From contig OU015524.1 in assembly GCA_907165065.1 (NCBI GenBank), positions 62,001-126,000 of the forward strand: a stretch of DNA of 64,000 bases, written 5' to 3'. Below are positions 1 through 29,864 of this stretch, piece by piece (position 1 is the stretch's first letter; each line of letters opens with the position of its first letter). This DNA comes from Caprimulgus europaeus (Eukaryota; Chordata; Aves; Caprimulgiformes; Caprimulgidae). The position numbers and the translations under genes were made by a program. The notes beneath the pieces are model-generated. The model saw only the letters and a program-made list of their open reading frames with translations. It did no database searches and had not been told where the DNA came from.

Positions 1-1250
1 AACTCGGGCCTCAGTCCTTTGCCTGGCTTGCCAGGAGCGTTTTCGTTCCCCGGGAGCCACACTGCCGAGAGAGCCCGGCAGGGCTCTGAAACTGCGAATG
101 AACGCTGCCTGCTCCAAGGCCAAAGGAGCCAGGCTTGAAAGCTGCTGCTGGATCTTTTCTCCAACCGCCCACGCACTTATAGCCCCATTCAACTCGGGCC
201 TCAGTCCTTTGCCTGGCTCGCCAGGAGCGTTTTCGTTCCCCGAGAGCCACACTGCCGAGAGAGCCCGGCAGGGCTCTGAAACTGCGAATGAACGCTGCCT
301 GCTCCAAGGCCAAAGGAGCCAGGCTTGAAAGCTGCTGCTGGATCTTTTCTCCAACCGCCCACGCACTTATAGCCCCATTCAACTCGGGCCTCAGTCCTTT
401 GCCTGGCTTGCCAGGAGCGTTTTCGTTCCCCGGGAACCACACTGCCGAGAGAGCCCGGCAGGGCTCTGAAACTGCGAATGAACGCTGCCTGCTCCAAGGC
501 CAAAGGAGCCAGGCTTGAAAGCTGCTGCTGGATCTTTTCTCCAACCGCCCACGCACTTATAGCCCCATTCAACTCGGGCCTCAGTCCTTTGCCTGGCTCG
601 CCAGGAGCGTTTTCGTTCCCCGGGAGCCACACTGCCGAGAGAGCCCGGCAGGGCTCTGAAACTGCGAATGAACGCTGCCTGCTCCAAGGCCAAAGGAGCC
701 AGGCTTGAAAGCTGCTGCTGGATCTTTTCTCCAACCGCCCACGCACTTATAGCCCCATTCAACTCGGGCCTCAGTCCTTTGCCTGGCTCGCCAGGAGCGT
801 TTTCGTTCCCCGGGAACCACACTGCCGAGAGAGCCCGGCAGGGCTCTGAAACTGCGAATGAACGCTGCCTGCTCCAAGGCCAAAGGAGCCAGGCTTGAAA
901 GCTGCTGCTGGATCTTTTCTCCAACCGCCCACGCACTTATAGCCCCATTCAACTCGGGCCTCAGTCCTTTGCCTGGCTCGCCAGGAGCGTTTTCGTTCCC
1001 CGAGAGCCACACTGCCGAGAGAGCCCGGCAGGGCTCTGAAACTGCGAATGAACGCTGCCTGCTCCAAGGCCAAAGGAGCCAGGCTTGAAAGCTGCTGCTG
1101 GATCTTTTCTCCAACCGCCCACGCACTTATAGCCCCATTCAACTCGGGCCTCAGTCCTTTGCCTGGCTCGCCAGGAGCGTTTGCGTTCCCCGGGAACCAC
1201 ACTGCCGAGAGAGCCCGGCAGGGCTCGGAAACTGCAAACAAACGCTGCCT
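1..1250. repeat. 190-bp satellite, array 1 (cut by window edge)
   Basis: Six full 190-bp periods run from position 1 to 1140, followed by a partial monomer. The monomer is GC-rich. It carries short dyads, for example CCTGGC facing GCCAGG near its start. The array ends inside a monomer at about 1250, where the usual continuation 'gctccaagg' is replaced by 'tctcacgag'. Monomers differ mainly at a few diagnostic sites: C/T in 'ggctcgcc', G/A in 'cgggaaccac', and T/G in 'gttttcg'. The length equals that of a 190-bp HaeIII centromeric satellite reported from duck. I could not compare the sequences, so identity is not claimed. Confidence 0.97.
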
Positions 1251-1470
1251 TCTCACGAGTTTCACCTGGGGTGCCCCAACCCACTGCTGAAGCCATTCAG
1301 GATTGGGGAACCATCTATCTTGCCCCACAGTAGCCCAAAGGCAGCAGTACCAAAGCAAAATGGAGAAGAGGAAAGCAGGAGGAAAGACAGGTGGACAAAG
1401 AGAAGAAATGTGGGACAAGGAGACAAAAAATGAGATGTTGCAAACGAGACATATTAGCAAACAGAGACCC
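1251..1470. other. Satellite-to-spacer junction segment (S1)
   Basis: This 220-bp single-copy-like block recurs after the end of each 190-bp array (also 8031 and 25453) at very high identity. Its second half is purine-rich and resembles the 79-bp purine satellite found elsewhere in the window. No coding or RNA signal is seen. Confidence 0.8.
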
Positions 1471-3345
1471 TAGTTCCAAACCAGAAGTCCTTGGGAGTAC
1501 CCCTGGTTTTGGTGTGGAACCCTAATTGTAGCCTGGAAGTCCCTGCGAGTACCCCTAGTTCCAGGGGAAAAAAAACCCTAACTCCAGAGTGAACATCCCT
1601 CGGGGTACTCTGAGGTCAAAGTGGAACCCTAATTCCACACCAGAAGTCCCTAGGGGAACCCTTTGTGGCAGAACTGAACCCTAATTCCATACCAAGATTC
1701 ACTGGGGGCACCCGAAGTTGCAGGGCAGATCTCTAATTCCATACCGAAAGTCCCTAGGAGTACCCCTGGTTTCAGTGTGGAACCCTAATTGTACCCTGGA
1801 AGTCCCTGGGGGTACCCCTAGTTTGAGGGATGAACCCTAATTCCACCCTGGAAGTCCATGAGGGTACCTCTAGTTTCTTGGCGGAACCCTAATTCTTCCC
1901 AAGAAGTTCCTGGGGGTACCCCTAATTCCAGGGCAGAATCTTAATTCTTCACCGGAAGTCTTTAGGGGTACCCCTAGCTCCGGGGAGAAACCCTAATTCC
2001 ACCCTGGAAGTCTGTGAGGGCACCTCTAGTTTCTTGGTAGAACCCTAATTCTGCCCTGGAATTTCCTGGGGGTAACCCTAGTTCCAGGGCTGAACCCTAA
2101 TTCCATACCTGAAGTCTCTAGGAGTACCCCTCGTTGCAAGGAGGAATCCTAATTCCACACCGAATGTCCTCGGGGGTAGCCCTGGTTTCGGAGTGAAACC
2201 CTAATTGTACCCTGGAAGTCCCTGGGGGTACCCCTGGTTGCAGGGCGGAACCTGAATTCCACATCAGAAGTTCCTTTGGGTACTCCTAGTTTCAAGGTGG
2301 AACCCCAATTCTACCCTGGAAGTTACTGAGGGTACCCCTAATTCCAGGGCAGAATCCTAATTCCACACTGGAAGTCCCATGGGGAACTCCCTATTCCATC
2401 CTGGAATTCCCTAGGGGTACCCCAAGTTCCAGAGCAGAATCCTAATTCCACAGCGGAAGTCCCTGGGGGTACCCCTACTTCCAGGACGGAATCTTATTTA
2501 CAGTCCAAAAGTCTCTTGGGGAATCCCAACTTCCCTGGCAGAACCCTAATTCTACTCCCAAAGTCCCTAGGGGTACCCATAGTTCTGGGGCAGAATCCTA
2601 ATCCCACTCCCAAAGTCCCTAGCAGTACCCCTACTTCCGGGGTGGAACCCTACTGCCACTCCCAAAGTCCCTAAGGGTATCAATACTTCTGGGGCGAAAC
2701 CCTAAGTCCACTCCTGAAGTCCCTAGGCGTAACCCTACTTCCAGGGCAGAACCTTAATTCCACTCCCGAAGTGCCTAGAGGTAACCCTACTTCTGGGGCG
2801 GAACCCTAATTCCACTCCCGAAGTCCTTACAGGTAACCCTACTTCCAGGACAGAAACCTAATTCCACTCCCAAAGTCCCTAGGGGTACCCCTACGTCCGG
2901 GACAGAACTCTAAATCCACACTGGAAGTCCCTGGGGATGTTCGTAGTTGCGAGGTGGAGCCCTACATCTAAAAGGGAACTCCCTAGGGATAAACCTACTT
3001 TAGAGGACAAAACCCTAACTCCACTCCTGAGCTCCCTAGGGGTATCCCAACATCCGTGGCGGAACACTAATTCCACATTGGAAGTCCCTAGGGGTACCCC
3101 TGCTGGCGAAGCAGAACCTTAATTCCACTCCCAAAGTCTCTACGGGTACCCATAGTTCTGGGGCAGAACCCTAAATCCACTCAGGAAGTCCCTAGGGGTA
3201 ACCCTACTTCTGAGGTGGAACCTTAATTCCACTCCCAAAGTCCCTAGGGGTACGCCTACTTCCGGGACGGAACCCTAATTCCACACTGGAAGTCCCTGAG
3301 GGTACCCCTATGTGTGGGGCAGAACCCCAATTCCACTCCAAAAGT
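1471..3345 (+). repeat. 52-bp tandem repeat, forward arm of S1
   Basis: About 36 degenerate copies of a 52-bp unit. The core reads roughly 'ggaagtccctaggggtaccc' followed by 'ggcggaaccctaattccac'. Spacing between successive 'ccctaattcc' words is 50-54 bp. Each unit contains an AACCCTAA-like word that resembles the C-rich telomere strand. Copies differ enough that specific units can be matched between modules. Short open frames here are by-products of the repeat. Confidence 0.95.
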
Positions 3346-3525
3346 CATAAAAAAAAACAAAAATGGAAAAAAAAAACAACCCAGAGGAATAACAAAAAAA
3401 AAAGAGAAAAAATATTTTTAAAATTTAGAAAAATAAAAAAAGGAATAAAATTAAAAAAGAAAAAAAAAAGGGAAAAATAATGCGGAAAAAAATATATTAA
3501 AAAAAAGAGCAAAAAACCCCCCTCC
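3346..3525. repeat. A-rich tract at the centre of S1
   Basis: About 180 bp of nearly pure A with scattered G and T, between the forward 52-bp arm and the 55-bp array. Homopolymer lengths differ slightly between the three module copies, as expected from slippage. It has no clear target duplication or tail structure that would mark a retroposon. Confidence 0.9.
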
Positions 3526-3895
3526 AGTCCGACCAGAACTAGTGAGCCGGCACTTTGGTTCCGCTGCCGTCACCGAAATGGGTCCGGCTGGAACTAGTGA
3601 GCCGGAACTTTGGTTCCGCTGCCGTCACCGAAATGGGTCCGGCTGGAACTAGTGAGCCGGCACTTTGGTTCCGCTGCCGTCACCGAAATGGGTCCGGCTG
3701 GAACTAGTGAGCCGGCACTTTGGTTCCGCTGCCGTCACCGAAATGGGTCCGGCTGGAACTAGTGAGCCGGAACTTTGGTTCCGCTGCCGTCACCGAAATG
3801 GGTCCGGCTGGAACTAGTGAGCCGGAACTTTGGTTCCGCTGCCGTCACCGAAATGGGTCCGGCTGGAACTAGTGAGCCGGAACTTTGGTTCCGGG
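3526..3895 (+). repeat. 55-bp tandem repeat, 7 copies (S1)
   Basis: The word 'agtgagccgg' recurs exactly every 55 bp at 3541, 3596, 3651, 3706, 3761, 3816 and 3871. Each unit contains 'actttggttccg' and 'ccgtcaccgaaatgggtc'. Copies are nearly identical, differing mainly at one A/C site, so they have been recently homogenised. Confidence 0.97.
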
Positions 3896-4731
3896 GCAGA
3901 ACTTTTGTTCCTCCTTGGAATTTGGGGTACCCCCCAGGGACTTCGGGAGTGGAATTAAGGTTCCGCCCCGGAAGTAGAGGTAGCCCTAGGGACTTTGGGA
4001 GTGGAAGTAGGGTTCCATCCTGGAAGTAGGGTTGCCCCTAGCAACTTTGGGAGTGGAATTAGTGTTCCGCCCCAGAAGTTTGGACACCTCTAGGGACTTC
4101 AGGAGTGGAATTAAGGTTTCGCCCCAGAAGTTGGGATACCCCTAGGGATTTCAGGAGTTGAATTAAGGTTCCACTTCAGAATCAGGGTTACCCCTAGGGA
4201 CTTCGGGAGTGGAATTAGGGTTCAGCGCAAAAAGAAAGGTTATCCCCAGGGACTTCGAGAGTGGACTTAGGGTTCCGCCCGGGAAGTTGGGTTACCCCAA
4301 GGGACTTCCAATGTGGAATAAGTGTTCCGCCACGGACGTTAGGATACCCCTAGGGAGCTCAGGAGTGGAATTAGGGTTCCGTCCTCGAATGTAGGTTTAC
4401 CCCTAGGGACTTACCTTTTAGATGTAGGGTTCCACCCCACAATTAGGAACATCCCCAGGGACTTCCAGTGTGGATTTAGAGTTCTGTCCTGGAAGTAGGG
4501 TTACCACTAGGGACTTTGGGAGTGGAATCAGGGTCCCACCCTGGAAGACGGGTCACCTTGAGTGACTTCCCAAGTGCAATTAGGGTTCCACCAGGGAAGT
4601 TGGGATACCCCTTGGGACTTCTGGAGTGTAATTAAGATTCCATCCCGGAAGTAGGGTTACGCGAGGGACTTTGGGAGTGGATTTAAGGTTGCACCCCAGA
4701 ACTAGGGTTACGCCTAGGAACTTCAGGAGTT
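3896..4731 (-). repeat. 52-bp tandem repeat, inverted arm of S1
   Basis: About 16 copies of the same 52-bp repeat as 1471-3345, but reverse-complemented: words such as 'ttagggttccgcccc' replace 'ggcggaaccctaa'. With the forward arm it makes a large imperfect inverted repeat around the A-rich and 55-bp core. The arm stops abruptly at 4731, where 190-bp satellite begins. Confidence 0.94.
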
Positions 4732-7700
4732 GCGTTCCCCGGGAGCCAAAATGCCGAGAGAGCCCGGCAGGGCTCTGAAACTGCGAATGAACGCTGCCTG
4801 CTCCAAGGCCAAAGGAGCCAGGCTTGAAAGCTGCTGCTGGATCTTTTCTCCAACCGCCCACGCACTTATAGCCCCATTCAACTCGGGCCTCAGTCCTTTG
4901 CCTGGCTTGCCAGGAGCGTTTTCGTTCCCCGGGAGCCACACTGCCGAGAGAGCCCGGCAGGGCTCTGAAACTGCGAATGAACGCTGCCTGCTCCAAGGCC
5001 AAAGGAGCCAGGCTTGAAAGCTGCTGCTGGATCTTTTCTCCAACCGCCCACGCACTTATAGCCCCATTCAACTCGGGCCTCAGTCCTTTGCCTGGCTCGC
5101 CAGGAGCGTTTTCGTTCCCCGGGAACCACACTGCCGAGAGAGCCCGGCAGGGCTCTGAAACTGCGAATGAACGCTGCCTGCTCCAAGGCCAAAGGAGCCA
5201 GGCTTGAAAGCTGCTGCTGGATCTTTTCTCCAACCGCCCACGCACTTATAGCCCCATTCAACTCGGGCCTCAGTCCTTTGCCTGGCTCGCCAGGAGCGTT
5301 TTCGTTCCCCGGGAACCACACTGCCGAGAGAGCCCGGCAGGGCTCTGAAACTGCGAATGAACGCTGCCTGCTCCAAGGCCAAAGGAGCCAGGCTTGAAAG
5401 CTGCTGCTGGATCTTTTCTCCAACCGCCCACGCACTTATAGCCCCATTCAACTCGGGCCTCAGTCCTTTGCCTGGCTCGCCAGGAGCGTTTTCGTTCCCC
5501 GGGAAGCCACACTGCCGAGAGAGCCCGGCAGGGCTCTGAAACTGCGAATGAACGCTGCCTGCTCCAAGGCCAAAGGAGCCAGGCTTGAAAGCTGCTGCTG
5601 GATCTTTTCTCCAACCGCCCACGCACTTATAGCCCCATTCAACTCGGGCCTCAGTCCTTTGCCTGGCTCGCCAGGAGCGTTTTCGTTCCCCAGGAACCAC
5701 ACTGCCGAGAGAGCCCGGCAGGGCTCTGAAACTGCGAATGAACGCTGCCTGCTCCAAGGCCAAAGGAGCCAGGCTTGAAAGCTGCTGCTGGATCTTTTCT
5801 CCAACCGCCCACGCACTTATAGCCCCATTCAACTCGGGCCTCAGTCCTTTGCCTGGCTTGCCAGGAGCGTTTTCGTTCCCCGGGAGCCACACTGCCGAGA
5901 GAGCCCGGCAGGGCTCTGAAACTGCGAATGAACGCTGCCTGCTCCAAGGCCAAAGGAGCCAGGCTTGAAAGCTGCTGCTGGATCTTTTCTCCAACCGCCC
6001 ACGCACTTAAAGCCCCATTCAACTCGGGCCTCAGTCCTTTGCCTGGCTTGCCAGGAGCGTTTTCGTTCCCCGGGAACCACACTGCCGAGAGAGCCCGGCA
6101 GGGCTCTGAAACTGCGAATGAACGCTGCCTGCTCCAAGGCCAAAGGAGCCAGGCTTGAAAGCTGCTGCTGGATCTTTTCTCCAACCGCCCACGCACTTAT
6201 AGCCCCATTCAACTCGGGCCTCAGTCCTTTGCCTGGCTCGCCAGGAGCGTTTTCGTTCCCCGGGAACCACACTGCCGAGAGAGCCCGGCAGGGCTCTGAA
6301 ACTGCGAATGAACGCTGCCTGCTCCAAGGCCAAAGGAGCCAGGCTTGAAAGCTGCTGCTGGATCTTTTCTCCAACCGCCCACGCACTTATAGCCCCATTC
6401 AACTCGGGCCTCAGTCCTTTGCCTGGCTCGCCAGGAGCGTTTGCGTTCCCCGGGAACCACACTGCCGAGAGAGCCCGGCAGGGCTCTGAAACTGCGAATG
6501 AACGCTGCCTGCTCCAAGGCCAAAGGAGCCAGGCTTGAAAGCTGCTGCTGGATCTTTTCTCCAACCGCCCACGCACTTATAGCCCCATTCAACTCGGGCC
6601 TCAGTCCTTTGCCTGGCTCGCCAGGAGCGTTTTCGTTCCCCGGGAACCACACTGCCGAGAGAGCCCGGCAGGGCTCTGAAACTGCGAATGAACGCTGCCT
6701 GCTCCAAGGCCAAAGGAGCCAGGCTTGAAAGCTGCTGCTGGATCTTTTCTCCAACCGCCCACGCACTTATAGCCCCATTCAACTCGGGCCTCAGTCCTTT
6801 GCCTGGCTCGCCAGGAGCGTTTTCGTTCCCCGGGAGCCACACTGCCGAGAGAGCCCGGCAGGGCTCTGAAACTGCGAATGAACGCTGCCTGCTCCAAGGC
6901 CAAAGGAGCCAGGCTTGAAAGCTGCTGCTGGATCTTTTCTCCAACCGCCCACGCACTTATAGCCCCATTCAACTCGGGCCTCAGTCCTTTGCCTGGCTCG
7001 CCAGGAGCGTTTTCGTTCCCCGGGAACCACACTGCCGAGAGAGCCCGGCAGGGCTCTGAAACTGCGAATGAACGCTGCCTGCTCCAAGGCCAAAGGAGCC
7101 AGGCTTGAAAGCTGCTGCTGGATCTTTTCTCCAACCGCCCACGCACTTATAGCCCCATTCAACTCGGGCCTCAGTCCTTTGCCTGGCTCGCCAGGAGCGT
7201 TTTCGTTCCCCGGGAACCACACTGCCGAGAGAGCCCGGCAGGGCTCTGAAACTGCGAATGAACGCTGCCTGCTCCAAGGCCAAAGGAGCCAGGCTTGAAA
7301 GCTGCTGCTGGATCTTTTCTCCAACCGCCCACGCACTTATAGCCCCATTCAACTCGGGCCTCAGTCCTTTGCCTGGCTCGCCAGGAGCGTTTTCGTTCCC
7401 CGGGAGCCACACTGCCGAGAGAGCCCGGCAGGGCTCTGAAACTGCGAATGAACGCTGCCTGCTCCAAGGCCAAAGGAGCCAGGCTTGAAAGCTGCTGCTG
7501 GATCTTTTCTCCAACCGCCCACGCACTTATAGCCCCATTCAACTCGGGCCTCAGTCCTTTGCCTGGCTTGCCAGGAGCGTTTTCGTTCCCCGGGAACCAC
7601 ACTGCCGAGAGAGCCCGGCAGGGCTCTGAAACTGCGAATGAACGCTGCCTGCTCCAAGGCCAAAGGAGCCAGGCTTGAAAGCTGCTGCTGGATCTTTTCT

Positions 7701-8030
7701 CCAACCGCCCACGCACTTATAGCCCCATTCAACTCGGGCCTCAGTCCTTTGCCTGGCTTGCCAGGAGCGTTTGCGTTCCCCGGGAGCCACACTGCCGAGA
7801 GAGCCCGGCAGGGCTCTGAAACTGCGAATGAACGCTGCCTGCTCCAAGGCCAAAGGAGCCAGGCTTGAAAGCTGCTGCTGGATCTTTTCTCCAACCGCCC
7901 ACGCACTTAAAGCCCCATTCAACTCGGGCCTCAGTCCTTTGCCTGGCTCGCCAGGAGCGTTTGCGTTCCCCGGGAACCACACTGCCGAGAGAGCCCGGCA
8001 GGGCTCTGAAACTGCAAACAAACGCTGCCT
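4732..8030. repeat. 190-bp satellite, array 2
   Basis: About 17.3 monomers. The array opens mid-monomer with a variant first copy ('gagccaaaatgcc' instead of 'cacactgcc'). The marker 'aactcgggcc' recurs from 4880 to 7921 in sixteen steps totalling 3041 bp, so one monomer has a 1-bp insertion ('gggaagccac' near 5503). It ends at the same half-monomer boundary as arrays 1 and 3. Open frames of 76 and 181 codons inside the array simply repeat because each monomer lacks stops in some frames; they are not genes. Confidence 0.97.
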
Positions 8031-8250
8031 TCTCACGAGTTTCACCTGGGGTGCCCCAACCCACTGCTGAAGCCATTCAGGATTGGGGAACCATCTACCT
8101 TGCCCCACAGTAGCCCAAAGGCAGCAGGACCAAAGCAAAAAGAGAGAAGAGGAAAGCAGGAGGAAAGACAGGTGGACAAAGAGAAGAAATGTGGGACAAG
8201 GAGACAAAAAATGAGATGTTGCAAACTAGAGATATTAGCAAACAGAGACC
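8031..8250. other. Satellite-to-spacer junction segment (S2)
   Basis: Near-identical copy of 1251-1470, offset by 6780 bp. It differs from the S1 copy by a few substitutions and a 1-bp length change. No coding signal. Confidence 0.8.
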
Positions 8251-10125
8251 CTAGTTCCAAACCATAAGTCCTTTGGAGTACCCCTGGTTTTGGTGTGGAA
8301 CCCTAATTGTAGCCTGGAAGTCCCTGCGAGTACCCCTAGTTCCAGGGGAAAAAAAACCCTAATTCCAGAGTGAACATCCCTCGGGGTACTCTGAGGTCTA
8401 AGGTGGAACCCTAATTCCACACCAGAAGTCCCTAGGGGAACCCTTTGTGGCAGAACTGAACCCTAATTCCATACCAAGATTCACTGGGGGCACCCGAAGT
8501 TGCAGGGCAGATCTCTAATTCCATACTGAAAGTCCCTAGGAGTACCCCTGGTTTCAGTGTGGAACCCTAATTGTACCCTGGAAATCCCTGGGGGTACCCC
8601 TAGGTTGAGAGATGAACCCTAATTCCACCCTGGAAGTCCATGAGGGTACCTCTAGTTTCTTGGCGGAACCCTAATTCTGCCCAAGAAGTTCCTGGGGGTA
8701 CCCCTAATTCCAGGGCAGAATCTTAATTCTTCACCGGAAGTCTTTAGGGGTACCCCTAGCTCCGGGGAGAAACCCTAATTCCACCCTGGAAGTCTGTGAG
8801 GGCACCTCTAGTTTCTTGGTAGAACCCTAATTCTGCCCTGGAATTTCCTGGGGGTAACCCTAGTTCCAGGGCTGAACCCTAATTCCATACCTGAAGTCTC
8901 TAGGAGTACCCCTCGTTGCAAGGAGGAATCCTAATTCCACACCGAATGTCCTCGGGGGTAGCCCTGGTTTCGGAGTGAAACCCTAATTGTACCCTGGAAG
9001 TCCCTGGGGGTTCCCCTGGTTGCAGGGCGGAACCTGAATTCCACATCAGAAGTTCCTTTGGGTACTCCTAGTTTCAAGGTGGAACCCCAATTCTACCCTG
9101 GAAGTTACTGAGGGTACCCCTAATTCCAGGGCAGAATCCTAATTCCACACTGGAAGTCCCATGGGGAACTCCCTATTCCATCCTGGAATTCCCTAGGGGT
9201 ACCCCAAGTTCCAGAGCAGAATCCTAATTCCACAGCGGAAGTCCCTGGGGGTACCCCTACTTCCAGGACGGAATCTTATTTGCAGTCCAAAAGTCTCTTG
9301 GGGAATCCCAACTTCCCTGGCAGAACCCTAATTCTACTCCCAAAGTCCCTAGGGGTACCCATAGTTCTGGGGCAGAATCCTAATTCCACTCCCAAAGTCC
9401 CTAGCAGTACCCCTACTTCCGGGGTGGAACCCTACTGCCACTCCCAAAGTCCCTAAGGGTATCAATACTTCTGGGGCGAAACCCTAAGTCCACTCCTGAA
9501 GTCCCTAGGCGTAACCCTACTTCCAGGGCAGAACCTTAATTCCACTCCCAAAGTGCCTAGAGGTAACCCTACTTCTGGGGTGGAACCCTAATTCCACTCC
9601 CAAAGTCCTTACAGGTAACCCTACTTCCAGGACAGAAACCTAATTCCACTCCCAAAGTTCCTAGGGGTACCCCTACGTCCGGGACAGAACTCTAAATCCA
9701 CACTGGAAGTCCCTGGGGATGTTCGTAGTTGCGAGGTGGAGCCCTACATCTAAAAGGGAACTCCCTAGGGATAAATCTACTTTAGAGGACAAAACCCTAA
9801 CTCCACTCCTGAGCTCCCTAGGGGTATCCCAACATCCGTGGCGGAACACTAATTCCACATTGGAAGTCCCTAGGGGTACCCCTGCTGGCGAAGCAGAACC
9901 TTAATTCCACTCCCAAAGTCTCTACGGGTACCCATAGTTCTGGGGCAGAACCCTAAATCCACTCAGGAAGTCCCTAGGGGTAACCCTACTTCTGAGGTGG
10001 AACCTTAATTCCACTCCCAAAGTCCCTAGGGGTACGCCTACTTCCGGGACGGAACCCTAATTCCACACTGGAAGTCCCTGAGGGTACCCCTATGTGTGGG
10101 GCAGAACCCCAATTCCACTCCAAAA
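8251..10125 (+). repeat. 52-bp tandem repeat, forward arm of S2
   Basis: Near-identical copy of the S1 forward arm, with individual units in the same order. The identity across unlike neighbouring units shows that the whole 6.78-kb block was duplicated, rather than each repeat expanding independently. Confidence 0.95.
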
Positions 10126-10300
10126 GTCATAAAAAAAAACAAAAATGGAAAAAAAAAGCAACCCAGAGGAATAACAAAAAAAGAAAAAGAGAAAAAATAT
10201 TTTTAAAATTTAGAAAAATAAAAAAAGGAATAAAATTAAAAAAGAAAAAAAAAGGGAAAAATAATGCGGAAAAAAATATATTTAAAAAAAGAGCAAAAAA
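10126..10300. repeat. A-rich tract at the centre of S2
   Basis: Copy of the S1 A-rich tract with small homopolymer length differences. Confidence 0.9.
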
Positions 10301-10680
10301 CCCCCGTCCAGTCCGACCGGAACTAGTGAGCCGGCACTTTGGTTCCGCTGCCGTCACCGAAATGGGTCCGGCTGGAACTAGTGAGCCGGCACTTTGGTTC
10401 CGCTGCCGTCACCGAAATGGGTCCGGCTGGAACTAGTGAGCCGGCACTTTGGTTCCGCTGCCGTCACCGAAATGGGTCCGGCTGGAACTAGTGAGCCGGC
10501 ACTTTGGTTCCGCTGCCGTCACCGAAATGTGTCCGGCTGGAACTAGTGAGCCGGCACTTTGGTTCCGCTGCCGTCACCGAAATGGGTCCGGCTGGAACTA
10601 GTGAGCCGGCACTTTGGTTCCGCTGCCGTCACCGAAATGGGTCCGGCTGGAACTAGTGAGTCGGAACTTTGGTTCCGGGG
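10301..10680 (+). repeat. 55-bp tandem repeat, 7 copies (S2)
   Basis: The marker 'agtgag' recurs every 55 bp at 10325, 10380, 10435, 10490, 10545, 10600 and 10655. The copy number equals S1, but the A/C site pattern differs between the two modules: S2 carries 'gccggcac' in the first six copies and 'gtcggaac' in the seventh. Confidence 0.97.
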
Positions 10681-17500: not shown

Positions 17501-20500
17501 AAGCTGCTGCTGGATCTTTTCTCCAACCGCCCACGCACTTATAGCCCCATTCAACTCGGGCCTCAGTCCTTTGCCTGGCTCGCCAGGAGCGTTTTCGTTC
17601 CCCGGGAGCCACACTGCCGAGAGAGCCCGGCAGGGCTCTGAAACTGCGAATGAACGCTGCCTGCTCCAAGGCCAAAGGAGCCAGGCTTGAAAGCTGCTGC
17701 TGGATCTTTTCTCCAACCGCCCACGCACTTATAGCCCCATTCAACTCGGGCCTCAGTCCTTTGCCTGGCTTGCCAGGAGCGTTTTCGTTCCCCGGGAGCC
17801 ACACTGCCGAGAGAGCCCGGCAGGGCTCTGAAACTGCGAATGAACGCTGCCTGCTCCAAGGCCAAAGGAGCCAGGCTTGAAAGCTGCTGCTGGATCTTTT
17901 CTCCAACCGCCCACGCACTTATAGCCCCATTCAACTCGGGCCTCAGTCCTTTGCCTGGCTTGCCAGGAGCGTTTTCGTTCCCCGGGAACCACACTGCCGA
18001 GAGAGCCCGGCAGGGCTCTGAAACTGCGAATGAACGCTGCCTGCTCCAAGGCCAAAGGAGCCAGGCTTGAAAGCTGCTGCTGGATCTTTTCTCCAACCGC
18101 CCACGCACTTATAGCCCCATTCAACTCGGGCCTCAGTCCTTTGCCTGGCTCGCCAGGAGCGTTTTCGTTCCCCGGGAGCCACACTGCCGAGAGAGCCCGG
18201 CAGGGCTCTGAAACTGCGAATGAACGCTGCCTGCTCCAAGGCCAAAGGAGCCAGGCTTGAAAGCTGCTGCTGGATCTTTTCTCCAACCGCCCACGCACTT
18301 ATAGCCCCATTCAACTCGGGCCTCAGTCCTTTGCCTGGCTCGCCAGGAGCGTTTTCGTTCCCCGGGAACCACACTGCCGAGAGAGCCCGGCAGGGCTCTG
18401 AAACTGCGAATGAACGCTGCCTGCTCCAAGGCCAAAGGAGCCAGGCTTGAAAGCTGCTGCTGGATCTTTTCTCCAACCGCCCACGCACTTATAGCCCCAT
18501 TCAACTCGGGCCTCAGTCCTTTGCCTGGCTCGCCAGGAGCGTTTTCGTTCCCCGGGAACCACACTGCCGAGAGAGCCCGGCAGGGCTCTGAAACTGCGAA
18601 TGAACGCTGCCTGCTCCAAGGCCAAAGGAGCCAGGCTTGAAAGCTGCTGCTGGATCTTTTCTCCAACCGCCCACGCACTTATAGCCCCATTCAACTCGGG
18701 CCTCAGTCCTTTGCCTGGCTCGCCAGGAGCGTTTTCGTTCCCCGGGAACCACACTGCCGAGAGAGCCCGGCAGGGCTCTGAAACTGCGAATGAACGCTGC
18801 CTGCTCCAAGGCCAAAGGAGCCAGGCTTGAAAGCTGCTGCTGGATCTTTTCTCCAACCGCCCACGCACTTATAGCCCCATTCAACTCGGGCCTCAGTCCT
18901 TTGCCTGGCTCGCCAGGAGCGTTTTCGTTCCCCGGGAACCACACTGCCGAGAGAGCCCGGCAGGGCTCTGAAACTGCGAATGAACGCTGCCTGCTCCAAG
19001 GCCAAAGGAGCCAGGCTTGAAAGCTGCTGCTGGATCTTTTCTCCAACCGCCCACGCACTTATAGCCCCATTCAACTCGGGCCTCAGTCCTTTGCCTGGCT
19101 CGCCAGGAGCGTTTTCGTTCCCCGGGAACCACACTGCCGAGAGAGCCCGGCAGGGCTCTGAAACTGCGAATGAACGCTGCCTGCTCCAAGGCCAAAGGAG
19201 CCAGGCTTGAAAGCTGCTGCTGGATCTTTTCTCCAACCGCCCACGCACTTATAGCCCCATTCAACTCGGGCCTCAGTCCTTTGCCTGGCTCGCCAGGAGC
19301 GTTTTCGTTCCCCGGGAGCCACACTGCCGAGAGAGCCCGGCAGGGCTCTGAAACTGCGAATGAACGCTGCCTGCTCCAAGGCCAAAGGAGCCAGGCTTGA
19401 AAGCTGCTGCTGGATCTTTTCTCCAACCGCCCACGCACTTATAGCCCCATTCAACTCGGGCCTCAGTCCTTTGCCTGGCTCGCCAGGAGCGTTTTCGTTC
19501 CCCGGGAGCCACACTGCCAAGAGAGCCCGGCAGGGGTCTGAAACTGCGAATGAACGCTGCCTGCTCCAAGGCCAAAGGAGCCAGGCTTGAAAGCTGCTGC
19601 TGGATCTTTTCTCCAACCGCCCACGCACTTATAGCCCCATTCAACTCGGGCCTCAGTCCTTTGCCTGGCTCGCCAGGAGCGTTTTCGTTCCCCGGGAACC
19701 ACACTGCCGAGAGAGCCCGGCAGGGCTCTGAAACTGCGAATGAACGCTGCCTGCTCCAAGGCCAAAGGAGCCAGGCTTGAAAGCTGCTGCTGGATCTTTT
19801 CTCCAACTGCCCACGCACTTATAGCCCCATTCAACTCGGGCCTCAGTCCTTTGCCTGGCTCGCCAGGAGCGTTTCCGTTCCCCGGGAACCACACTGCCGA
19901 GAGAGCCCGGCAGGGCTCTGAAACTGCGAATGAACGCTGCCTGCTCCAAGGCCAAAGGAGCCAGGCTTGAAAGCTGCTGCTGGATCTTTTCCCCAACCGC
20001 CCACGCACTTATAGCCCTATTCAACTCGGGCCTCAGTCCTTTGCCTGGCTTGCCAGGAGCGTTTTCGTTCCCCGGGAACCACACTGCCGAGAGAGCCCGG
20101 CAGGGCTCTGAAACTGCGAATGAACGCTGCCTGCTCCAAGGCCAAAGGAGCCAGGCTTGAAAGCTGCTGCTGGATCTTTTCTCCAACCGCCCACGCACTT
20201 AAAGCCCCATTCAACTCGGGCCTCAGTCCTTTGCCTGGCTCGCCAGGAGCGTTTTCATTCCCCGGGAACCACACTGCCGAGAGAGCCCGGCAGGGCTCTG
20301 AAACTGCGAATGAACGCTGCCTGCTCCAAGGCCAAAAGAGCCAGGCTTGAAAGCTGCTGCTGGATCTTTTCTCCAACCGCCCACGCACTTATAGCCCCAT
20401 TCAACTCGGGCCTCAGTCCTTTGCCTGGCTCGCCAGGAGCGTTTTCATTCCCCGGGAACCACACTGCCGAGAGAGCCCGGCAGGGCTCTGAAAATGCGAA

Positions 20501-23500
20501 TGAACGCTGCCTGCTCCAAGGCCAAAGGAGCCAGGCGTGAAAGCTGCTGCTGGATCTTTTCTCCAACCGCCCACGCACTTATAGCCTCATTCAACTCGGG
20601 CCTCAGTCCTTTGCCTGGCTCGCCAGGAGCGTTTTCGTTCCCCGGGAACCACACTGCCGAGAGAGCCCAGCAGGGCTCTGAAACTGCGAATGAACGCTGC
20701 CTGCTCCAAGGCCAAAGGAGCCAGGCTTGAAAGCTGCTGCTGGATCTTTTCTGCAACTGCCCACGCACTTATAGCCCCATTCAACTCGGGCCTCAGTCCT
20801 TTGCCTGGCTCGCCACGAGCGTTTTCGTTCCCCGGGAACCACACTGCCGAGAGAGCCCGGCAGGGCTCTGAAACTGCGAATGAACGCTGCCTGCTCCAAG
20901 GCCAAAGGAGCCAGGCTTGAAAGCTGCTGCTGGATCTTTTCTCCAACCGCCCACGCACTTAAAGCCCCATTCAACTCGGGCCTCAGTCCTTTGCCTGGCT
21001 TGCCAGGAGCGTTTTCGTTCCCCGGGAACCACACTGCCGAGAGAGCCCGGCAGGGCTCTGAAACTGCGAATGAACGCTGCCTGCTCCAAGGCCAAAGGAG
21101 CCAGGCTTGAAAGCTGCTGCTGGATCTTTTCTCCAACTGCCCACGCACTTATAGCCCCATTCAACTCGGGCCTCAGTCCTTTGCCTGGCTTGACAGGAGC
21201 GTTTTCGTTCCCCGGGAACCACACTGCCGAGAGAGCCCGGCAGGGCTCTGAAACTGCGAATGAACGCTGCCTGCTCCAAGGCCAAAGGAGCCAGGCTTGA
21301 AAGCTGCTGCTGGATCTTTTCTCCAACCGCCCACACACTTATAGCCCCATTCAACTCGGGCCTCAGTCCTTTGCCTGGCTTGCCAGGAGCGTTTTCGTTC
21401 CCCGGGAGCCACACTGCCGAGAGAGCCCGGCAGGGCTCTGAAACTGCGAATGAACGCTGCCTGCTCCAAGGCCAAAGGAGCCAGGCTTGAAAGCTGCTGC
21501 TGGATCTTTTCTCCAACCGCCCACGCACTTATAGCCCCATTCAACTCGGGCCTCAGTCCTTTGCCTGGCTCGCCAGGAGCGTTTTCATTCCCCGGGAACC
21601 ACACTGCCGAGAGAGCCCGGCAGGGCTCTGAAACTGCGAATGAACGCTGCCTGCTCCAAGGCCAAAAGAGCCAGGCTTGAAAGCTGCTGCTGGATCTTTT
21701 CTCCAACCGCCCACGCACTTATAGCCCCATTCAACTCGGGCCTCAGTCCTTTGCCTGGCTCGCCAGGAGCGTTTTCATTCCCCGGGAACCACACTGCCGA
21801 GAGAGCCCGGCAGGGCTCTGAAACTGCGAATGAACGCTGCCTGCTCCAAGGCCAAAGGAGCCAGGCTTGAAAGCTGCTGCTGGATCTTTTCTCCAACCGC
21901 CCACGCACTTATAGCCTCATTCAACTCGGGCCTCAGTCCTTTGCCTGGCTCGCAAGGAGCGTTTTCGTTCCCCGGGAACCACACTGCCGAGAGAGCCCAG
22001 CAGGGCTCTGAAACTGCGAATGAACGCTGCCTGCTCCAAGGCCAAAGGAGCCAGGCTTGAAAGCTGCTGCTGGATCTTTTCTCCAACCGCCCATGCACTT
22101 ATAGCCCCATTCAACTCGGGCCTCAGTCCTTTGCCTGGCTTGCCAGGAGCGTTTGCGTTCCCCGGGAGCCACACTGCCAAGAGAGCCCGGCAGGGGTCTG
22201 AAACTGCGAATGAACGCTGCCTGCTCCAACGCCAAAGGAGCCAGGCTTGAAAGCTGCTGCTGGATCTTTTCTCCAACCGCCCACGCACTTATAGCCCCAT
22301 TCAACTCGGGCCTCAGTCCTTTGCCTGGCTCGCCAGGAGCGTTTTCGTTCCCCGGGAACCACACTGCCGAGAGAGCCCGGCAGGGCTCTGAAACTGCGAA
22401 TGAACGCTGCCTGCTCCAAGGCCAAAGGAGCCAGGCTTGAAAGCTGCTGCTGGATCTTTTCTCCAACTGCCCACGCACTTATAGCCCCATTCAACTCGGG
22501 CCTCAGTCCTTTGCCTGGCTCGCCACGAGCGTTTTCGTTCCCCGGGAACCACACTGCCGAGAGAGCCCGGCAGGGCTCTGAAACTGCGAATGAACGCTGC
22601 CTGCTCCAAGGCCAAAGGAGCCAGGCTTGAAAGCTGCTGCTGGATCTTTTCTCCAACCGCCCACGCACTTATAGCCCCATTCAACTCGGGCCTCAGTCCT
22701 TTGCCTGGCTTGCCAGGAGCGTTTTCGTTCCCCGGGAACCACACTGCCGAGAGAGCCCGGCAGGGCTCTGAAACTGCGAATGAACGCTGCCTGCTCCAAG
22801 GCCAAAGGAGCCAGGCTTGAAAGCTGCTGCTGGATCTTTTCTCCAACCGCCCACGCACTTATAGCCCCATTCAACTCGGGCCTCAGTCCTTTGCCTGGCT
22901 CGCCAGGAGCGTTTTCGTTCCCCGGGAACCACACTGCCGAGAGAGCCCGGCAGGGCTCTGAAACTGCGAATGAACGCTGCCTGCTCCAAGGCCAAAGGAG
23001 CCAGGCTTGAAAGCTGCTGCTGGATCTTTTCTCCAACCTGCCCACGCACTTATAGCCCCATTCAACTCGGGCCTCAGTCCTTTGCCTGGCTCGCCAGGAG
23101 CGTTTTCGTTCCCCGGGAACCACACTGCCGAGAGAGCCCGGCAGGGCTCTGAAACCGCGAATGAACGCTGCCTGCTCCAAGGCCAAAGGAGCCAGGCTTG
23201 AAAGCTGCTGCTGGATCTTTTCTCCAACTGCCCACGCACTTATAGCCCCATTCAACTCGGGCCTCAGTCCTTTGCCTGGCTCGCCAGGAGCGTTTCCGTT
23301 CCCCGGGAACCACACTGCCGAGAGAGCCCGGCAGGGCTCTGAAACTGCGAATGAACGCTGCCTGCTCCAAGGCCAAAGGAGCCAGGCTTGAAAGCTGCTG
23401 CTGGATCTTTTCTCCAACCGCCCACGCACTTATAGCCTCATTCAACTCGGGCCTCAGTCCTTTGCCTGGCTCGCCAGGAGCGTTTTCGTTCCCCGGGAAC

Positions 23501-25452
23501 CACACTGCCGAGAGAGCCCGGCAGGGCTCTGAAACTGCGAATGAACGCTGCCTGCTCCAAGGCCAAAGGAGCCAGGCTTGAAAGCTGCTGCTGGATCTTT
23601 TCTCCAACTGCCCACGCACTTATAGCCCCATTCAACTCGGGCCTCAGTCCTTTGCCTGGCTCGCCAGGAGCGTTTCCGTTCCCCGGGAACCACACTGCCG
23701 AGAGAGCCCGGCAGGGCTCTGAAACTGCGAATGAACGCTGCCTGCTCCAAGGCCAAAGGAGCCAGGCTTGAAAGCTGCTGCTGGATCTTTTCTCCAACCA
23801 CCCACGCACTTATAGCCCCATTCAACTCGGGCCTCAGTCCTTTGCCTGGCTCGCCAGGAGCGTTTTCGTTCCCCGAGAACCACACTGCCGAGAGAGCCCG
23901 GCAGGGCTCTGAAACTGCGAATGAACGCTGCCTGCTCCAAGGCCAAAGGAGCCAGGCTTGAAAGCTGCTGCTGGATCTTTTCTCCAACCGCCCACGCACT
24001 TATAGCCCCATTCAACTCGGGCCTCAGTCCTTTGCCTGGCTCGCCAGGAGCGTTTTCATTCCCCGGGAACCACACTGCCGAGAGAGCCCGGCAGGGCTCC
24101 GAAACTGCGAATGAACGCTGCCTGCTCCAAGGCCAAAGGAGCCAGGCTTGAAAGCTGCTGCTGGATCTTTTCTCCAACCGCCCACGCACTTATAGCCCCA
24201 TTCAACTCGGGCCTCAGTCCTTTGCCTGGCTTGCCAGGAACGTTTTCGTTCCCCGGGAACCACACTGCGGAGAGAGCCCGGCAGGGCTCTGAAACTGCGA
24301 ATGAACGCTGCCTGCTCCAAGGCCAAAGGAGCCAGGCTTGAAAGCTGCTGCTGGATCTTTTCTCCAACCGCCCATGCACTTATAGCCCCATTCAACTCGG
24401 GCCTCAGTCCTTTGCCTGGCTTGCCAGGAGCGTTTTCGTTCCCCGGGAGCCACACTGCCAAGAGAGCCCGGCAGGGCTCTGAAACTGCGAATGAACGCTG
24501 CCTGCTCCAAGGCCAAAGGAGCCAGGCTTGAAAGCTGCTGCTGGATCTTTTCTCCAACCACCCACGCACTTATAGCCCCATTCAACTCGGGCCTCAGTCC
24601 TTTGCCTGGCTCGCCACGAGCGTTTTCGTTCCCCGGGAACCACACTGCCGAGAGAGCCCGGCAGGGCTCTGAAACTGCGAATGAACGCTGCCTGCTCCAA
24701 GGCCAAAGGAGCCAGGCTTGAAAGCTGCTGCTGGATCTTTTCTCAACCGCCCACGCACTTATAGCCCCATTCAACTCGGGCCTCAGTCCTTTGCCTGGCT
24801 CGCCACGAGCGTTTTCGTTCCCCGGGAACCACACTGCCGAGAGAGCCCGGCAGGGCTCTGAAACTGCAAATGAACGCTGCCTGCTCCAAGGCCAAAGGAG
24901 CCAGGCTTGAAAGCTGCTGCTGGATCTTTTCTCCAACCGCCCACGCACTTAAAGCCCCATTCAACGCGGGCCTCAGTCCTTTGCCTGGCTCTCCAGGAGC
25001 GTTTGCGTTCCCCGGGAACAACACTGCCGAGAGAGCCCGGCAGGGCTCTGAAACTGCGAATGAACGCTGCCTGCTCCAAGGCCAAAGGAGCCAGGCTTGA
25101 AAGCTGCTGCTGGATCTTTTCTCCAACCGCCCACGCACTTATAGCCCCATTCAACTCGGGCCTCAGTCCTTTGCCTGGCTCGCCAGGAGCGTTTTCGTTC
25201 CCCGGGAACCACACTGCCGTGAGAGCCCGGCAGGGCTCTGAAACTGCGAATGAACGCTGCCTGCTCCAAGGCCAAAGGAGCCAGGCTTGAAAGCTGCTGC
25301 TGGATCTTTTCTCCAACCGCCCACGCACTTATAGCCCCATTCAACTCGGGCCTCAGTCCTTTGCCTGGCTCGCCAGGAGCGTTTGCGTTCCCCGGGAACC
25401 ACACTGCCGAGAGAGCCCGGCAGGGCTCTGAAACTGCAAACAAACGCTGCCT
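11516..25452. repeat. 190-bp satellite, array 3 (about 73 monomers)
   Basis: The marker 'aactcgggcc' runs from 11664 to 25343, a distance of 13679 bp. That is 72 monomers with five single-base length changes: +1 near 14187, -1 near 15700, -1 near 16650, +1 near 23038 and -1 near 24743. Monomers from about 14.3 to 19.3 kb are almost identical. Those from 19.5 to 25 kb carry many more substitutions, some repeating at 1330-bp and 2660-bp spacing. The first monomer has the same 'aaaatgcc' variant as array 2, and the array ends at the shared half-monomer boundary. Confidence 0.97.
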
Positions 25453-25672
25453 TCTCACGAGTTTCACCTGGGGTGCCCCAACCCACTGCTGAAGCCATTC
25501 AGGATTGGGGAACCATCTACCTTGCCCCACAGTAGCCCAAAGGCAGCAGGACCAAAGCAAAAAGAGAGAAGAGGAAAGCAGGAGGAAAGACAGGTGGACA
25601 AAGAGAAGAAATGTGGGACAAGGAGACAAAAAATGAGATGTTGCAAACTAGAGATATTAGCAAACAGAGACC
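25453..25672. other. Satellite-to-spacer junction segment (S3)
   Basis: Third copy of the 220-bp junction. It is closer to the S2 copy than to S1 (both read 'ccatctacct', while S1 reads 'ccatctatct'). Confidence 0.8.
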
Positions 25673-27548
25673 CTAGTTCCAAACCATAAGTCCTTTGGAG
25701 TACCCCTGGTTTTGGTGTGGAACCCTAATTGTAGCCTGGAAGTCCCTGCGAGTACCCCTAGTTCCAGGGGAAAAAAAACCCTAATTCCAGAGTGAACATC
25801 CCTCGGGGTACTCTGAGGTCTAAGGTGGAACCCTAATTCCACACCAGAAGTCCCTAGGGGAACCCTTTGTGGCAGAACTGAACCCTAATTCCATACCAAG
25901 ATTCACTGGGGGCACCCGAAGTTGCAGGGCAGATCTCTAATTCCATACTGAAAGTCCCTAGGAGTACCCCTGGTTTCAGTGTGGAACCCTAATTGTACCC
26001 TGGAAATCCCTGGGGGTACCCCTAGGTTGAGGGATGAACCCTAATTCCACCCTGGAAGTCCATGAGGGTACCTCTAGTTTCTTGGCGGAACCCTAATTCT
26101 GCCCAAGAAGTTCCTGGGGGTACCCCTAATTCCAGGGCAGAATCTTAATTCTTCACCGGAAGTCTTTAGGGGTACCCCTAGCTCCGGGGAGAAACCCTAA
26201 TTCCACCCTGGAAGTCTGTGAGGGCACCTCTAGTTTCTTGGTAGAACCCTAATTCTGCCCTGGAATTTCCTGGGGGTAACCCTAGTTCCAGGGCTGAACC
26301 CTAATTCCATACCTGAAGTCTCTAGGAGTACCCCTCGTTGCAAGGAGGAATCCTAATTCCACACCGAATGTCCTCGGGGGTAGCCCTGGTTTCGGAGTGA
26401 AACCCTAATTGTACCCTGGAAGTCCCTGGGGGTTCCCCTGGTTGCAGGGCGGAACCTGAATTCCACATCAGAAGTTCCTTTGGGTACTCCTAGTTTCAAG
26501 GTGGAACCCCAATTCTACCCTGGAAGTTACTGAGGGTACCCCTAATTCCAGGGCAGAATCCTAATTCCACACTGGAAGTCCCATGGGGAACTCCCTATTC
26601 CATCCTGGAATTCCCTAGGGGTACCCCAAGTTCCAGAGCAGAATCCTAATTCCACAGCGGAAGTCCCTGGGGGTACCCCTACTTCCAGGACGGAATCTTA
26701 TTTGCAGTCCAAAAGTCTCTTGGGGAATCCCAACTTCCCTGGCAGAACCCTAATTCTACTCCCAAAGTCCCTAGGGGTACCCATAGTTCTGGGGCAGAAT
26801 CCTAATTCCACTCCCAAAGTCCCTAGCAGTACCCCTACTTCCGGGGTGGAACCCTACTGCCACTCCCAAAGTCCCTAAGGGTATCAATACTTCTGGGGCG
26901 AAACCCTAAGTCCACTCCTGAAGTCCCTAGGCGTAACCCTACTTCCAGGGCAGAACCTTAATTCCACTCCCAAAGTGCCTAGAGGTAACCCTACTTCTGG
27001 GGTGGAACCCTAATTCCACTCCCAAAGTCCTTACAGGTAACCCTACTTCCAGGACAGAAACCTAATTCCACTCCCAAAGTTCCTAGGGGTACCCCTACGT
27101 CCGGGACAGAACTCTAAATCCACACTGGAAGTCCCTGGGGATGTTCGTAGTTGCGAGGTGGAGCCCTACATCTAAAAGGGAACTCCCTAGGGATAAACCT
27201 ACTTTAGAGGACAAAATCCTAACTCCACTCCTGAGCTCCCTAGGGGTATCCCAACATCCGTGGCGGAACACTAATTCCACATTGGAAGTCCCTAGGGGTA
27301 CCCCTGCTGGCGAAGCAGAACCTTAATTCCACTCCCAAAGTCTCTACGGGTACCCATAGTTCTGGGGCAGAACCCTAAATCCACTCAGGAAGTCCCTAGG
27401 GGTAACCCTACTTCTGAGGTGGAACCTTAATTCCACTCCCAAAGTCCCTAGGGGTACGCCTACTTCCGGGACGGAACCCTAATTCCACACTGGAAGTCCC
27501 TGAGGGTACCCCTATGTGTGGGGCAGAACCCCAATTCCACTCCAAAAG
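25673..27548 (+). repeat. 52-bp tandem repeat, forward arm of S3
   Basis: Near-identical to the S2 forward arm, unit by unit. Confidence 0.95.
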
Positions 27549-27725
27549 TCATAAAAAAAAAAACAAAAATGGAAAAAAAAAGCAACCCAGAGGAATAACA
27601 AAAAAAGAAAAAGAGAAAAAATATTTTTAAAATTTAGAAAAATAAAAAAAGGAATAAAATTAAAAAAGAAAAAAAAAAGGGAAAAATAATGCGGAAAAAA
27701 ATATATTAAAAAAAAGAGCAAAAAA
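27549..27725. repeat. A-rich tract at the centre of S3
   Basis: Third copy of the A-rich tract; homopolymer lengths vary from the other two. Confidence 0.9.
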
Positions 27726-28000
27726 CCCCCGTCCAGTCCGACCGGAACTAGTGAGCCGGCACTTTGGTTCCGCTGCCGTCACCGAAATGGGTCCGGCTGG
27801 AACTAGTGAGCCGGCACTTTGGTTCCGCTGCCGTCACCGAAATGGGTCCGGCTGGAACTAGTGAGCCGGCACTTTGGTTCCGCTGCCGTCACCGAAATGG
27901 GTCCGGCTGGAACTAGTGAGCCGGAACTTTGGTTCCGCTGCCGTCACCGAAATGGGTCCGGCTGGAACTAGTGAGTCGGAACTTTGGTTCCGGGGCAGAA
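27726..28000 (+). repeat. 55-bp tandem repeat, 5 copies (S3)
   Basis: The marker 'agtgag' occurs at 27750, 27805, 27860, 27915 and 27970. Two copies fewer than in S1 and S2, so the copy number is polymorphic between modules. Confidence 0.97.
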
Positions 28001-29250
28001 CTTTTGTTCTTCCTTGGAATTTGGGGTACCCCCAGGGACTTCGGGAGTGGAATTAAGGTTCCGCCCCGGAAGTAGAGTTAGCCCTAGGGACTTTGGGAGT
28101 GGAAGTAGGGTTCCATCCTGGAAGTAGGGTTGCCCCTAGCAACTTTGGGAGTGGAATTAGTGTTCCGCCCCAGAAGTTTGGACACCTCTAGGGACTTCAG
28201 GAGTGGAATTAAGGTTTCGCCCCAGAAGTTGGGATACCCCTAGGGATTTCAGGAGTTGAATTAAGGTTCCACTTCAGAATCAGGGTTACCCCTAGGGACT
28301 TTGGGAGTGGAATTAGGGTTCAGCACAAAAAGAAAGGTTATCCCCAGGGACTTCGAGAGTGGACTTAGGGTTCCGCCCGGGAAGTTGGGTTACCCCAAGG
28401 GACTTCCAATGTGGAATAAGTGTTCCGCCACGGACGTTAGGATACCCCTAGGGAGCTCAGGAGTGGAATTAGGGTTCCGTCCTCGAATGTAGGTTTACCC
28501 CTAGGGACTTACCTTTTAGATGTAGGGTTCCACCCCTCAATTAGGAACATCCCCAGGGACTTCCAGTGTGGATTTAGAGTTCTGTCCTGGAAGTAGGGTT
28601 ACCCCTAGGGACTTTGGGAGTGGAATCAGGGTCCCACCCTGGAAGTAGGGTTACCTTGAGTGACTTCCCAAGTGCAATTAGGGTTCCACCAGGGAAGTTA
28701 GGATACCCCTTGGGACTTCTGGAGTGTAATTAAGATTCCACCCCGGAAGTAGGGTTACGCCTAGGGACTTTGGGAGTGGAATCAGGGTTCCGCCCCAGAA
28801 GCTGGGACACCTTTAGGGACTTTGGGAGTGGATTTAAGGTTGCACCCCAGAACTAGGGTTACCCCTAGGAACTTCAGGAGTTGAATTAAGGTTCCACTTC
28901 GGAAGCAGGGGTACCCCTAGGGACTTTGGGAGTGGAATTAGGTTTCTGCTCCGGAAGTAGGTATACCCATAGGAACTTCAGAAGTCAAATTGTGGTTCAA
29001 CCCCAAAAGAAGGGTTACCCCCATGGACTTTGGAAGTGGAATTAGGGTTCCACCTCACAGTAGGGTTAATCCTACAGACTTCCAGTGTGGAATAAGGGTT
29101 CCGCCCAGCACTAGGTATATCCCCAGGGACTTCCAGTGGAATTAGGGTTCTGCCCTGGAACTAAGAATACCCTCAGGGACTTTAGGTGTGGAATTAGGAT
29201 TACGCCCCGAAAGTAGGGGTACCCCCAGGGACTTCCAGAGTGGAATTAGG
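28001..29250 (-). repeat. 52-bp tandem repeat, long inverted arm of S3
   Basis: The first 830 bp match the S1/S2 inverted arms. S3 then continues for about 400 bp of further 52-bp units, where S1 and S2 jump into 190-bp satellite. S3 also keeps about 60 bp near 28.77 kb that S1 and S2 lack. S3 therefore appears to show the uninterrupted form of the arm. Confidence 0.93.
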
Positions 29251-29860: not shown

Positions 29861-29864
29861 ATAC

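What the first reader, a model, noticed from the sequence alone, without database searches (positions are those of the whole stretch)
1..29250. Composite higher-order repeat: 190-bp satellite alternating with a 3.5-kb multi-repeat spacer
Junctions are offset by 6780-6784 bp between the first two periods (1251 to 8031; 4732 to 11516). Array length varies greatly (about 3.3 kb, then 13.9 kb) while the spacer stays at 3.48-3.49 kb. Satellite expansion seems to occur inside a fixed frame of spacers. A centromere-type satellite interspersed with an elaborate structured spacer is unusual.
Basis: seen in the sequence. Interest (0 to 1): 0.75.

Follow-up and report, generated by a model that had tools for sequence, protein, structure and literature searches.

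The report
Bird satellite array with captured flank
This looks like the edge of a very uniform 190-base bird satellite array in which a 3.5-kb piece of the neighbouring repeat-rich DNA was copied back into the array and is now present twice; it is a clear small example of a known kind of satellite turnover, not a new kind of centromere.

Summary
The repeats are real. Three 190-bp arrays (1-1254, 4733-8034, 11517-25456) alternate with two 3.48-kb spacers (1255-4732, 8035-11516); the junction offsets of 6780 and 6784 bp are confirmed. The third 'spacer' is not one: from 25457 the same sequence begins, but where both spacers switch back to satellite its 52-bp repeat runs on to 29251, with more 52-bp arrays to 37138 and no 190-bp satellite found after 25456. 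It is the array's flank, and the spacers look like copies of its first 3.4 kb. Both spacer-to-satellite joins are identical, at a 3-bp TTG overlap. Spacer 2 matches the flank on its left and spacer 1 at its last 230 bp. Best reading: one rearrangement joined flank to satellite, then unequal exchange or conversion made the second copy, while array length varied. No multi-monomer higher-order repeat survives correction for the lags tested, and no CENP-B box is present. The window is probably avian by its CR1 retroelement. Species, centromere identity and extent beyond the window could not be tested. Ordinary mechanism, nicely recorded.

The parts
1..1254 (+). Array A1: 190-bp satellite, 6.6 copies, open at the window's left edge
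   Evidence: TRF; monomer cutting
1255..4732 (+). Spacer 1 (s1), 3478 bp: best read as a copy of the array flank
1255..1465 (+). Spacer lead, about 210 bp, partly purine-rich, without 52-bp repeats
   Evidence: sequence; TRF start of the 52-bp array in spacer 2 (8248)
1466..3346 (+). 52-bp repeat arm in forward orientation, units about 70% alike (TRF rows in spacer 1 begin at 1624)
   Evidence: TRF; sequence
3347..3530 (.). A-rich core segment
   Evidence: sequence; TRF
3536..3893 (+). 55-bp tandem repeat core, 6.5 copies at 99%; CpG observed/expected 0.99
3931..4730 (-). 52-bp repeat arm in inverted orientation; 688 bp are 81.1% identical to the complement of the forward arm of the same spacer
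4724..4740 (+). Right junction of spacer 1: flank ...CAGGAGTTG joined to satellite ...TTGCGTTCCCC; 3-bp TTG overlap with the satellite variant TTTGCG
4733..8034 (+). Array A2: 17.4 copies of the 190-bp satellite
8035..11516 (+). Spacer 2 (s2), 3482 bp: left part matches the flank, last ~230 bp match spacer 1
11508..11524 (+). Right junction of spacer 2, identical to that of spacer 1
11517..19399 (+). Array A3, homogeneous left part: 42 monomers, mean pairwise difference 1.13 alignment columns
19400..25456 (+). Array A3, more diverged edge: 31 monomers, mean pairwise difference 4.22; weak 7-monomer periodicity (not significant after correction)
25457..29251 (+). Array flank ('s3'): same lead, 52(+), A-rich, 55-bp x4.7 and 52(-) order, but the 52(-) array runs on with no satellite after it
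29863..30434 (+). Further 52-bp array in the flank
32652..37138 (+). Second module in the flank with the same order: 52(+) arrays, 70-bp ACTTTGGTTCCGG repeat (36176-36387), inverted 52(-) (36398-37138)

Best explanation
This is the edge of a 190-bp avian satellite array shaped by ordinary illegitimate and unequal recombination. Step 1 (inferred from the shared breakpoint): a rearrangement with 3-bp microhomology joined a point inside the 52-bp repeats of the array's flank, about 3.4 kb from the array edge, back to a satellite monomer, so that a piece of flank became a spacer inside the array. Step 2 (inferred from shared junctions and the mosaic): unequal exchange, or duplication followed by conversion, between a spacer and the flank gave two spacers. 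Step 3 (pattern shown, process inferred): the number of monomers between spacers changes by exchange among near-identical monomers, while the spacers keep their length. The structure records how a satellite array takes in its own flank; no separate function of the spacer is needed.
For: The join sequence is the same at 3 of 3 left junctions and 2 of 2 right junctions. The flank lacks the right junction and continues in its own repeat. The last complete monomer before each of the three left junctions carries the variant TTTGCG, a word (CAGGAGCGTTTGCGTTCCCC) found 7 times in the window. Relative to the flank, s1 and s2 share the absence of 53 bp, two more 55-bp units and 8 substitutions in the last ~293 bp. 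On the left (1255-3348) s1 is the odd one at 20 of 23 variable sites, s2 at 2, s3 at 1; on the right (3901-4728) s1 at 3, s2 at 3, s3 at 10 of 16. s1-odd to s3-odd, 20:1 against 3:10, p = 2.1e-5; a scan over all split points with 20000 permutations gives p = 1e-4. Mean pairwise monomer difference rises from 1.13 to 4.22 toward the array edge. All arrays and spacers have one orientation.
Against: The mosaic signal sits in the last ~230 bp, plus two indels: without the 8 tail sites the contrast is 20:1 against 3:2, p = 0.085, and the split-point scan gives p = 0.26. So conversion, or mutations made when the join formed, could replace the crossover in step 2. s1 and s2 differ at 36 of 3362 gap-free columns, so step 2 is not one very recent clean event. 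Which of flank and spacer is ancestral is inferred from the flank's continuity, without an outgroup. No reads, second haplotype or sequence left of position 1 were available.
Confidence: 0.7

Rival explanations
1. A true composite higher-order repeat: the block [190-bp array + 3.48-kb spacer] is repeated many times through a functional centromere, and the spacer has a role such as boundary, transcription or replication origin.
For: Two spacers share junctions; the window begins inside an array, so more may lie to the left; inverted 52-bp arms around a CpG-rich 55-bp core look organised.
Against: Only two spacers are seen; the third is the flank. The two complete arrays differ fourfold in length, so there is no fixed period. 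The same arms-and-core order stands outside the satellite at 32652-37138, so the design does not depend on the array.
Confidence: 0.13
2. The spacer is a mobile element that inserted into the satellite.
For: It is a discrete 3.48-kb block within a tandem array.
Against: All junctions are shared; satellite phase is not continuous across the spacer (it leaves near monomer column 30 and resumes near column 153), so there is no simple short target duplication; the flank copy continues past the supposed end. The spacer's reading frames were not scanned with Pfam.
Confidence: 0.04
3. Assembly artefact: false tandem duplication of haplotypes, or a misjoin.
For: Divergence among copies (about 0.1-1.6% by segment) includes the range of allelic differences; long satellites are hard to assemble.
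Against: Each copy has its own variants (s1 odd 29, s2 odd 7, s3 odd 11 of 3362 gap-free columns); the same flank-to-satellite join occurs twice in distinguishable copies with different array lengths, which a single misjoin would not give.
Confidence: 0.11

Closest known systems
Duck 190-bp APL-HaeIII / RBMII centromeric satellite (PMC6435179, abstract and passages; used as centromere marker in PMC7787181, passages, and PMC11745021, passages)
   Same: 190-bp monomer in tandem array, bird
   Different: Reported GC 51.6% and clone identities 78.2-89.4% there; here 60% GC and about 99% identity. Sequence homology could not be tested.
Chicken CNM 41-bp centromeric HORs (PMC9974502, passages)
   Same: Avian satellite with block-level organisation
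   Different: CNM HOR units hold 26-98 monomers and occur 5-162 times per cluster; here two blocks of unequal length and another monomer
Human alpha-satellite layering (PMC9859433, passages)
   Same: Homogeneous interior, divergent monomers at the edge, unequal crossover and gene conversion named as drivers
   Different: No proven HOR here; a flank piece lies between monomeric arrays
Composite repeats that pair a satellite with other sequence, such as human LSau-beta-satellite composites (recalled, from no call)
   Same: Satellite and non-satellite DNA amplified as one block
   Different: Only two blocks seen, derived from the adjoining flank

Membership tests
Satellite higher-order repeat (alpha-satellite sense) | Monomers n apart more alike than neighbours, at a fixed n | tested here: not met
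   Best uncorrected permutation p: A2 0.043 at lag 5 (12 lags), A3 left part 0.005 at lag 23 (37 lags), whole A3 0.013 at lag 7 (68 lags); none survives correction. Power is low because monomers differ at about one position; A1 not tested
Satellite higher-order repeat (alpha-satellite sense) | Same, in the array edge | tested here: inconclusive
   A3 right part (31 monomers): lag 7, uncorrected p 0.0042 among 26 lags
Block tandem duplication including satellite and non-satellite DNA | Identical junctions in every copy | tested here: met
   3 of 3 left and 2 of 2 right junctions; one substitution (1227) lies 28 bases before the first left junction
Block tandem duplication including satellite and non-satellite DNA | A source copy adjoining the array | tested here: met
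   25457-29251 continues past the breakpoint in its own repeat
Transposon insertion | Uninterrupted target apart from a short duplication | tested here: not met
   Satellite phase leaves near column 30 and resumes near column 153
Avian 190-bp centromeric satellite (APL-HaeIII/RBMII) | Monomer length 190 bp | tested here: met
Avian 190-bp centromeric satellite (APL-HaeIII/RBMII) | Sequence homology | not testable with these tools
   Published sequences were not at hand; three 15-base words of the monomer, both strands, found no satellite paper
Centromere | CENP-A occupancy | not testable with these tools
   no chromatin data
CENP-B-binding satellite | CENP-B box (pattern TTCGNNNNANNCGGG, recalled) | tested here: not met
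   0 matches on either strand of 64000 bases

The most novel reading that the evidence does not exclude
Flank capture is a repeating process at this locus: array edges are rolled back into the satellite again and again, so spacers are dated markers of array growth from its edge, and the palindromic 52-bp module with its CpG-rich 55-bp core acts as a boundary or transcription unit that is carried along.
Probability: 0.1. Interest if true: 0.55.

Novelty: new member of a known kind. Interest (0 to 1): 0.25.

Why it matters
Satellite arrays are thought to grow and homogenise by unequal exchange, but in monomeric arrays exchanges leave little visible trace. Here a captured flank segment works as an internal marker: its shared breakpoint, microhomology and mosaic variants suggest that flank DNA entered the array, that it was then duplicated, and that monomer number between markers changes freely. 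The same markers could be used to read array-edge dynamics across individuals of this bird.

Tried and rejected
Whole-genome search: the same request to the genome search 'own' did not complete five times because the machine was busy; copy number and place in the genome stay unknown. Protein search with a chance reading frame of the satellite: 225 candidates, none at E<=0.001. Rfam at gathering thresholds: 0 matches in 64000 bases. Satellite words in papers: 2 papers, both unrelated by title. Paper search for a 52-bp bird satellite with unequal crossing-over: 45 papers, 12 listed, none naming such a satellite in its title; other satellite paper searches were used for context from their listings only, apart from five papers read in passages. 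Single-strand folding: one satellite monomer z = -1.06; four 55-bp units z = -3.34, but shuffling destroys the tandem repeat, so I give it no weight. CENP-B box: rejected. Transposon insertion: rejected by phase and by the flank copy.

Species: the CR1 reverse-transcriptase frame has 7988 hits of which 120 are listed; all but one of those (P0063, unnamed) are named as birds or turtles. BLASTP against the 120 fetched proteins puts little spotted kiwi first, 74% over 512 aa. This favours a bird and does not give a species.
Full report
What is there. Tandem Repeats Finder places 190-bp arrays at 1-1254, 4733-8034 and 11517-25456. An anchor scan of 1-29300 gave 99 hits, 189-191 bp apart inside arrays, and 96 full monomers. 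The monomer consensus is 190 bp, 60% GC, with 11 CpGs. Between the arrays lie two spacers, 1255-4732 and 8035-11516, 98.7% identical over 3488 columns. Each has the order: lead of about 210 bp, 52-bp repeats forward, A-rich stretch, 55-bp repeats, 52-bp repeats inverted. Within spacer 1 the two 52-bp arms match each other's complement over 688 bp at 81.1%.

The third period is the flank. The stretch from 25457 begins as the spacers do, and the join to satellite is the same in 3 of 3 cases. But where both spacers return to satellite (4733 and 11517), the third copy carries on in its own repeat...CAGGAGTTG followed by AATTAAGG, not by CGTTCCCC. Its inverted 52-bp array extends to 29251, and more 52-bp arrays follow at 29863-30434 and 32652-37138. 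A satellite dimer finds nothing better than E=1.8 in 25461-64000. The simplest reading is that 25457 onward is the native neighbour of the array and the spacers are copies of its first 3.4 kb.

How the spacers arose (inferred). The satellite does not resume where it left off: it leaves near monomer column 30 and resumes near column 153, so this is not a simple insertion. The join shows TTG shared by the flank and by the satellite variant with TTTGCG; the longer word with this variant occurs 7 times, once in the last complete monomer before each left junction. With the commoner TTTTCG monomer there would be no overlap. Both joins are identical, so they probably go back to one event.

How they multiplied (inferred). 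In 3362 gap-free columns s1 is the odd copy at 29 sites, s3 at 11 and s2 at 7. They are not spread evenly. In 1255-3348 (s1 coordinates) the counts are s1 20, s2 2, s3 1; in 3349-3900 s1 6, s2 2, s3 0; in 3901-4728 s1 3, s2 3, s3 10. s1-odd against s3-odd, first against last part, gives Fisher p = 2.1e-5, and a scan over all split points with 20000 permutations p = 1e-4. s2 and s3 differ at 3 of 2091 columns on the left and 13 of 827 on the right, p = 1.6e-5. s1 and s2 also share 110 bp (two 55-bp units) absent from s3 and lack 53 bp present in s3. The best single-gap alignment of the last 293 bp of s1 to the flank has 8 mismatches, at two adjacent gap positions only, and all 8 are shared by s2. 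So spacer 2 is flank-like on the left and spacer-1-like at its right end, which is what an unequal crossover between a spacer and the flank gives. Against this, 8 of the 10 right-hand s3-odd sites lie in 4506-4712. Without them the contrast is 20:1 to 3:2 (p = 0.085) and the split-point scan gives p = 0.26. Conversion is a fair alternative, and the changes next to the join may date from its formation.

The arrays. Monomers differ on average by 1.8 columns in A1 (6 monomers), 1.65 in A2 (17), 1.13 in the left part of A3 (42) and 4.22 in its right part (31). The right part adjoins the flank, so homogeneity falls toward the edge. No lag survives correction; the edge has a weak 7-monomer pattern, uncorrected p 0.0042 among 26 lags. 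Of variant cells against the consensus, 15 of 51 in the 65 monomers before 19400 and 29 of 71 in the 31 edge monomers are CpG-to-TpG/CpA changes, although CpG positions are 22 of 190. This suggests germline methylation, but shared variants are not independent: by distinct site-variants the counts are 5 of 15 and 9 of 36.

Age layers. Spacer copies are about 0.1-1.6% apart by segment, whereas 52-bp units within an arm are about 70% alike. The module at 32652-37138 has the same order of parts; its forward arm aligns at 72% over 1932 bp and its core and inverted arm at 68.5% over 905 bp. Because any two 52-bp arrays here align at about 70%, the kinship of the two modules rests on the order of parts more than on identity. 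Either way, the inverted design stands outside the satellite and looks older than its capture.

What it is. The window carries a CR1-type reverse transcriptase frame (PF00078, E=2.2e-33; 'CR1' is my naming from recall). Its listed relatives are birds and turtles, the best BLASTP score being kiwi. A 190-bp repeat is reported at centromeric regions of almost all duck chromosomes (PMC6435179, abstract and passages), so a centromeric or pericentromeric place is plausible, not shown. Centromeric satellites change by unequal crossover and gene conversion, with older layers at the edge (PMC9859433, passages), which fits the pattern here. I file this as a new member of a known kind.

Noticed in passing
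32652-37138: A second module with the spacer's order of parts (52-bp forward arm, ACTTTGGTTCCGG repeat, inverted 52-bp arm) outside the satellite.
   Followed up: partly
37401-40965: Degenerate 278-282-bp tandem array, about 70% matches, next to the 52-bp region: perhaps a dead older satellite.
   Followed up: no
58649-62735: About 4.1 kb of an 11-bp repeat AAGGGAAAGGA, almost purely purine on one strand.
   Followed up: no
54261-55197: 102-bp GC-rich array, 9.2 copies at 95%, CpG observed/expected 0.94 against 0.33 (46-54 kb) and 0.58 (55.2-58.6 kb) beside it.
   Followed up: no
30775-32611, 41881-43013, 46038-49419, 57199-58195, 62752-63999: Dispersed purine-rich segments that match one another at 67-87% in pairs, in the same orientation.
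   Followed up: partly
51144-52697: Open CR1-type reverse transcriptase frame (517 codons from stop to stop), best BLASTP score to little spotted kiwi.
   Followed up: partly
45238-45612: Fragment with a weak RNase H match below Pfam's cut-off, perhaps from a retrovirus-like element.
   Followed up: no
19400-25456: Weak 7-monomer periodicity and more CpG-decay variants at the array edge.
   Followed up: partly
3536-3893: The 55-bp core of spacer 1 has CpG observed/expected 0.99 while its 52-bp arms have 0.25 and 0.38.
   Followed up: no
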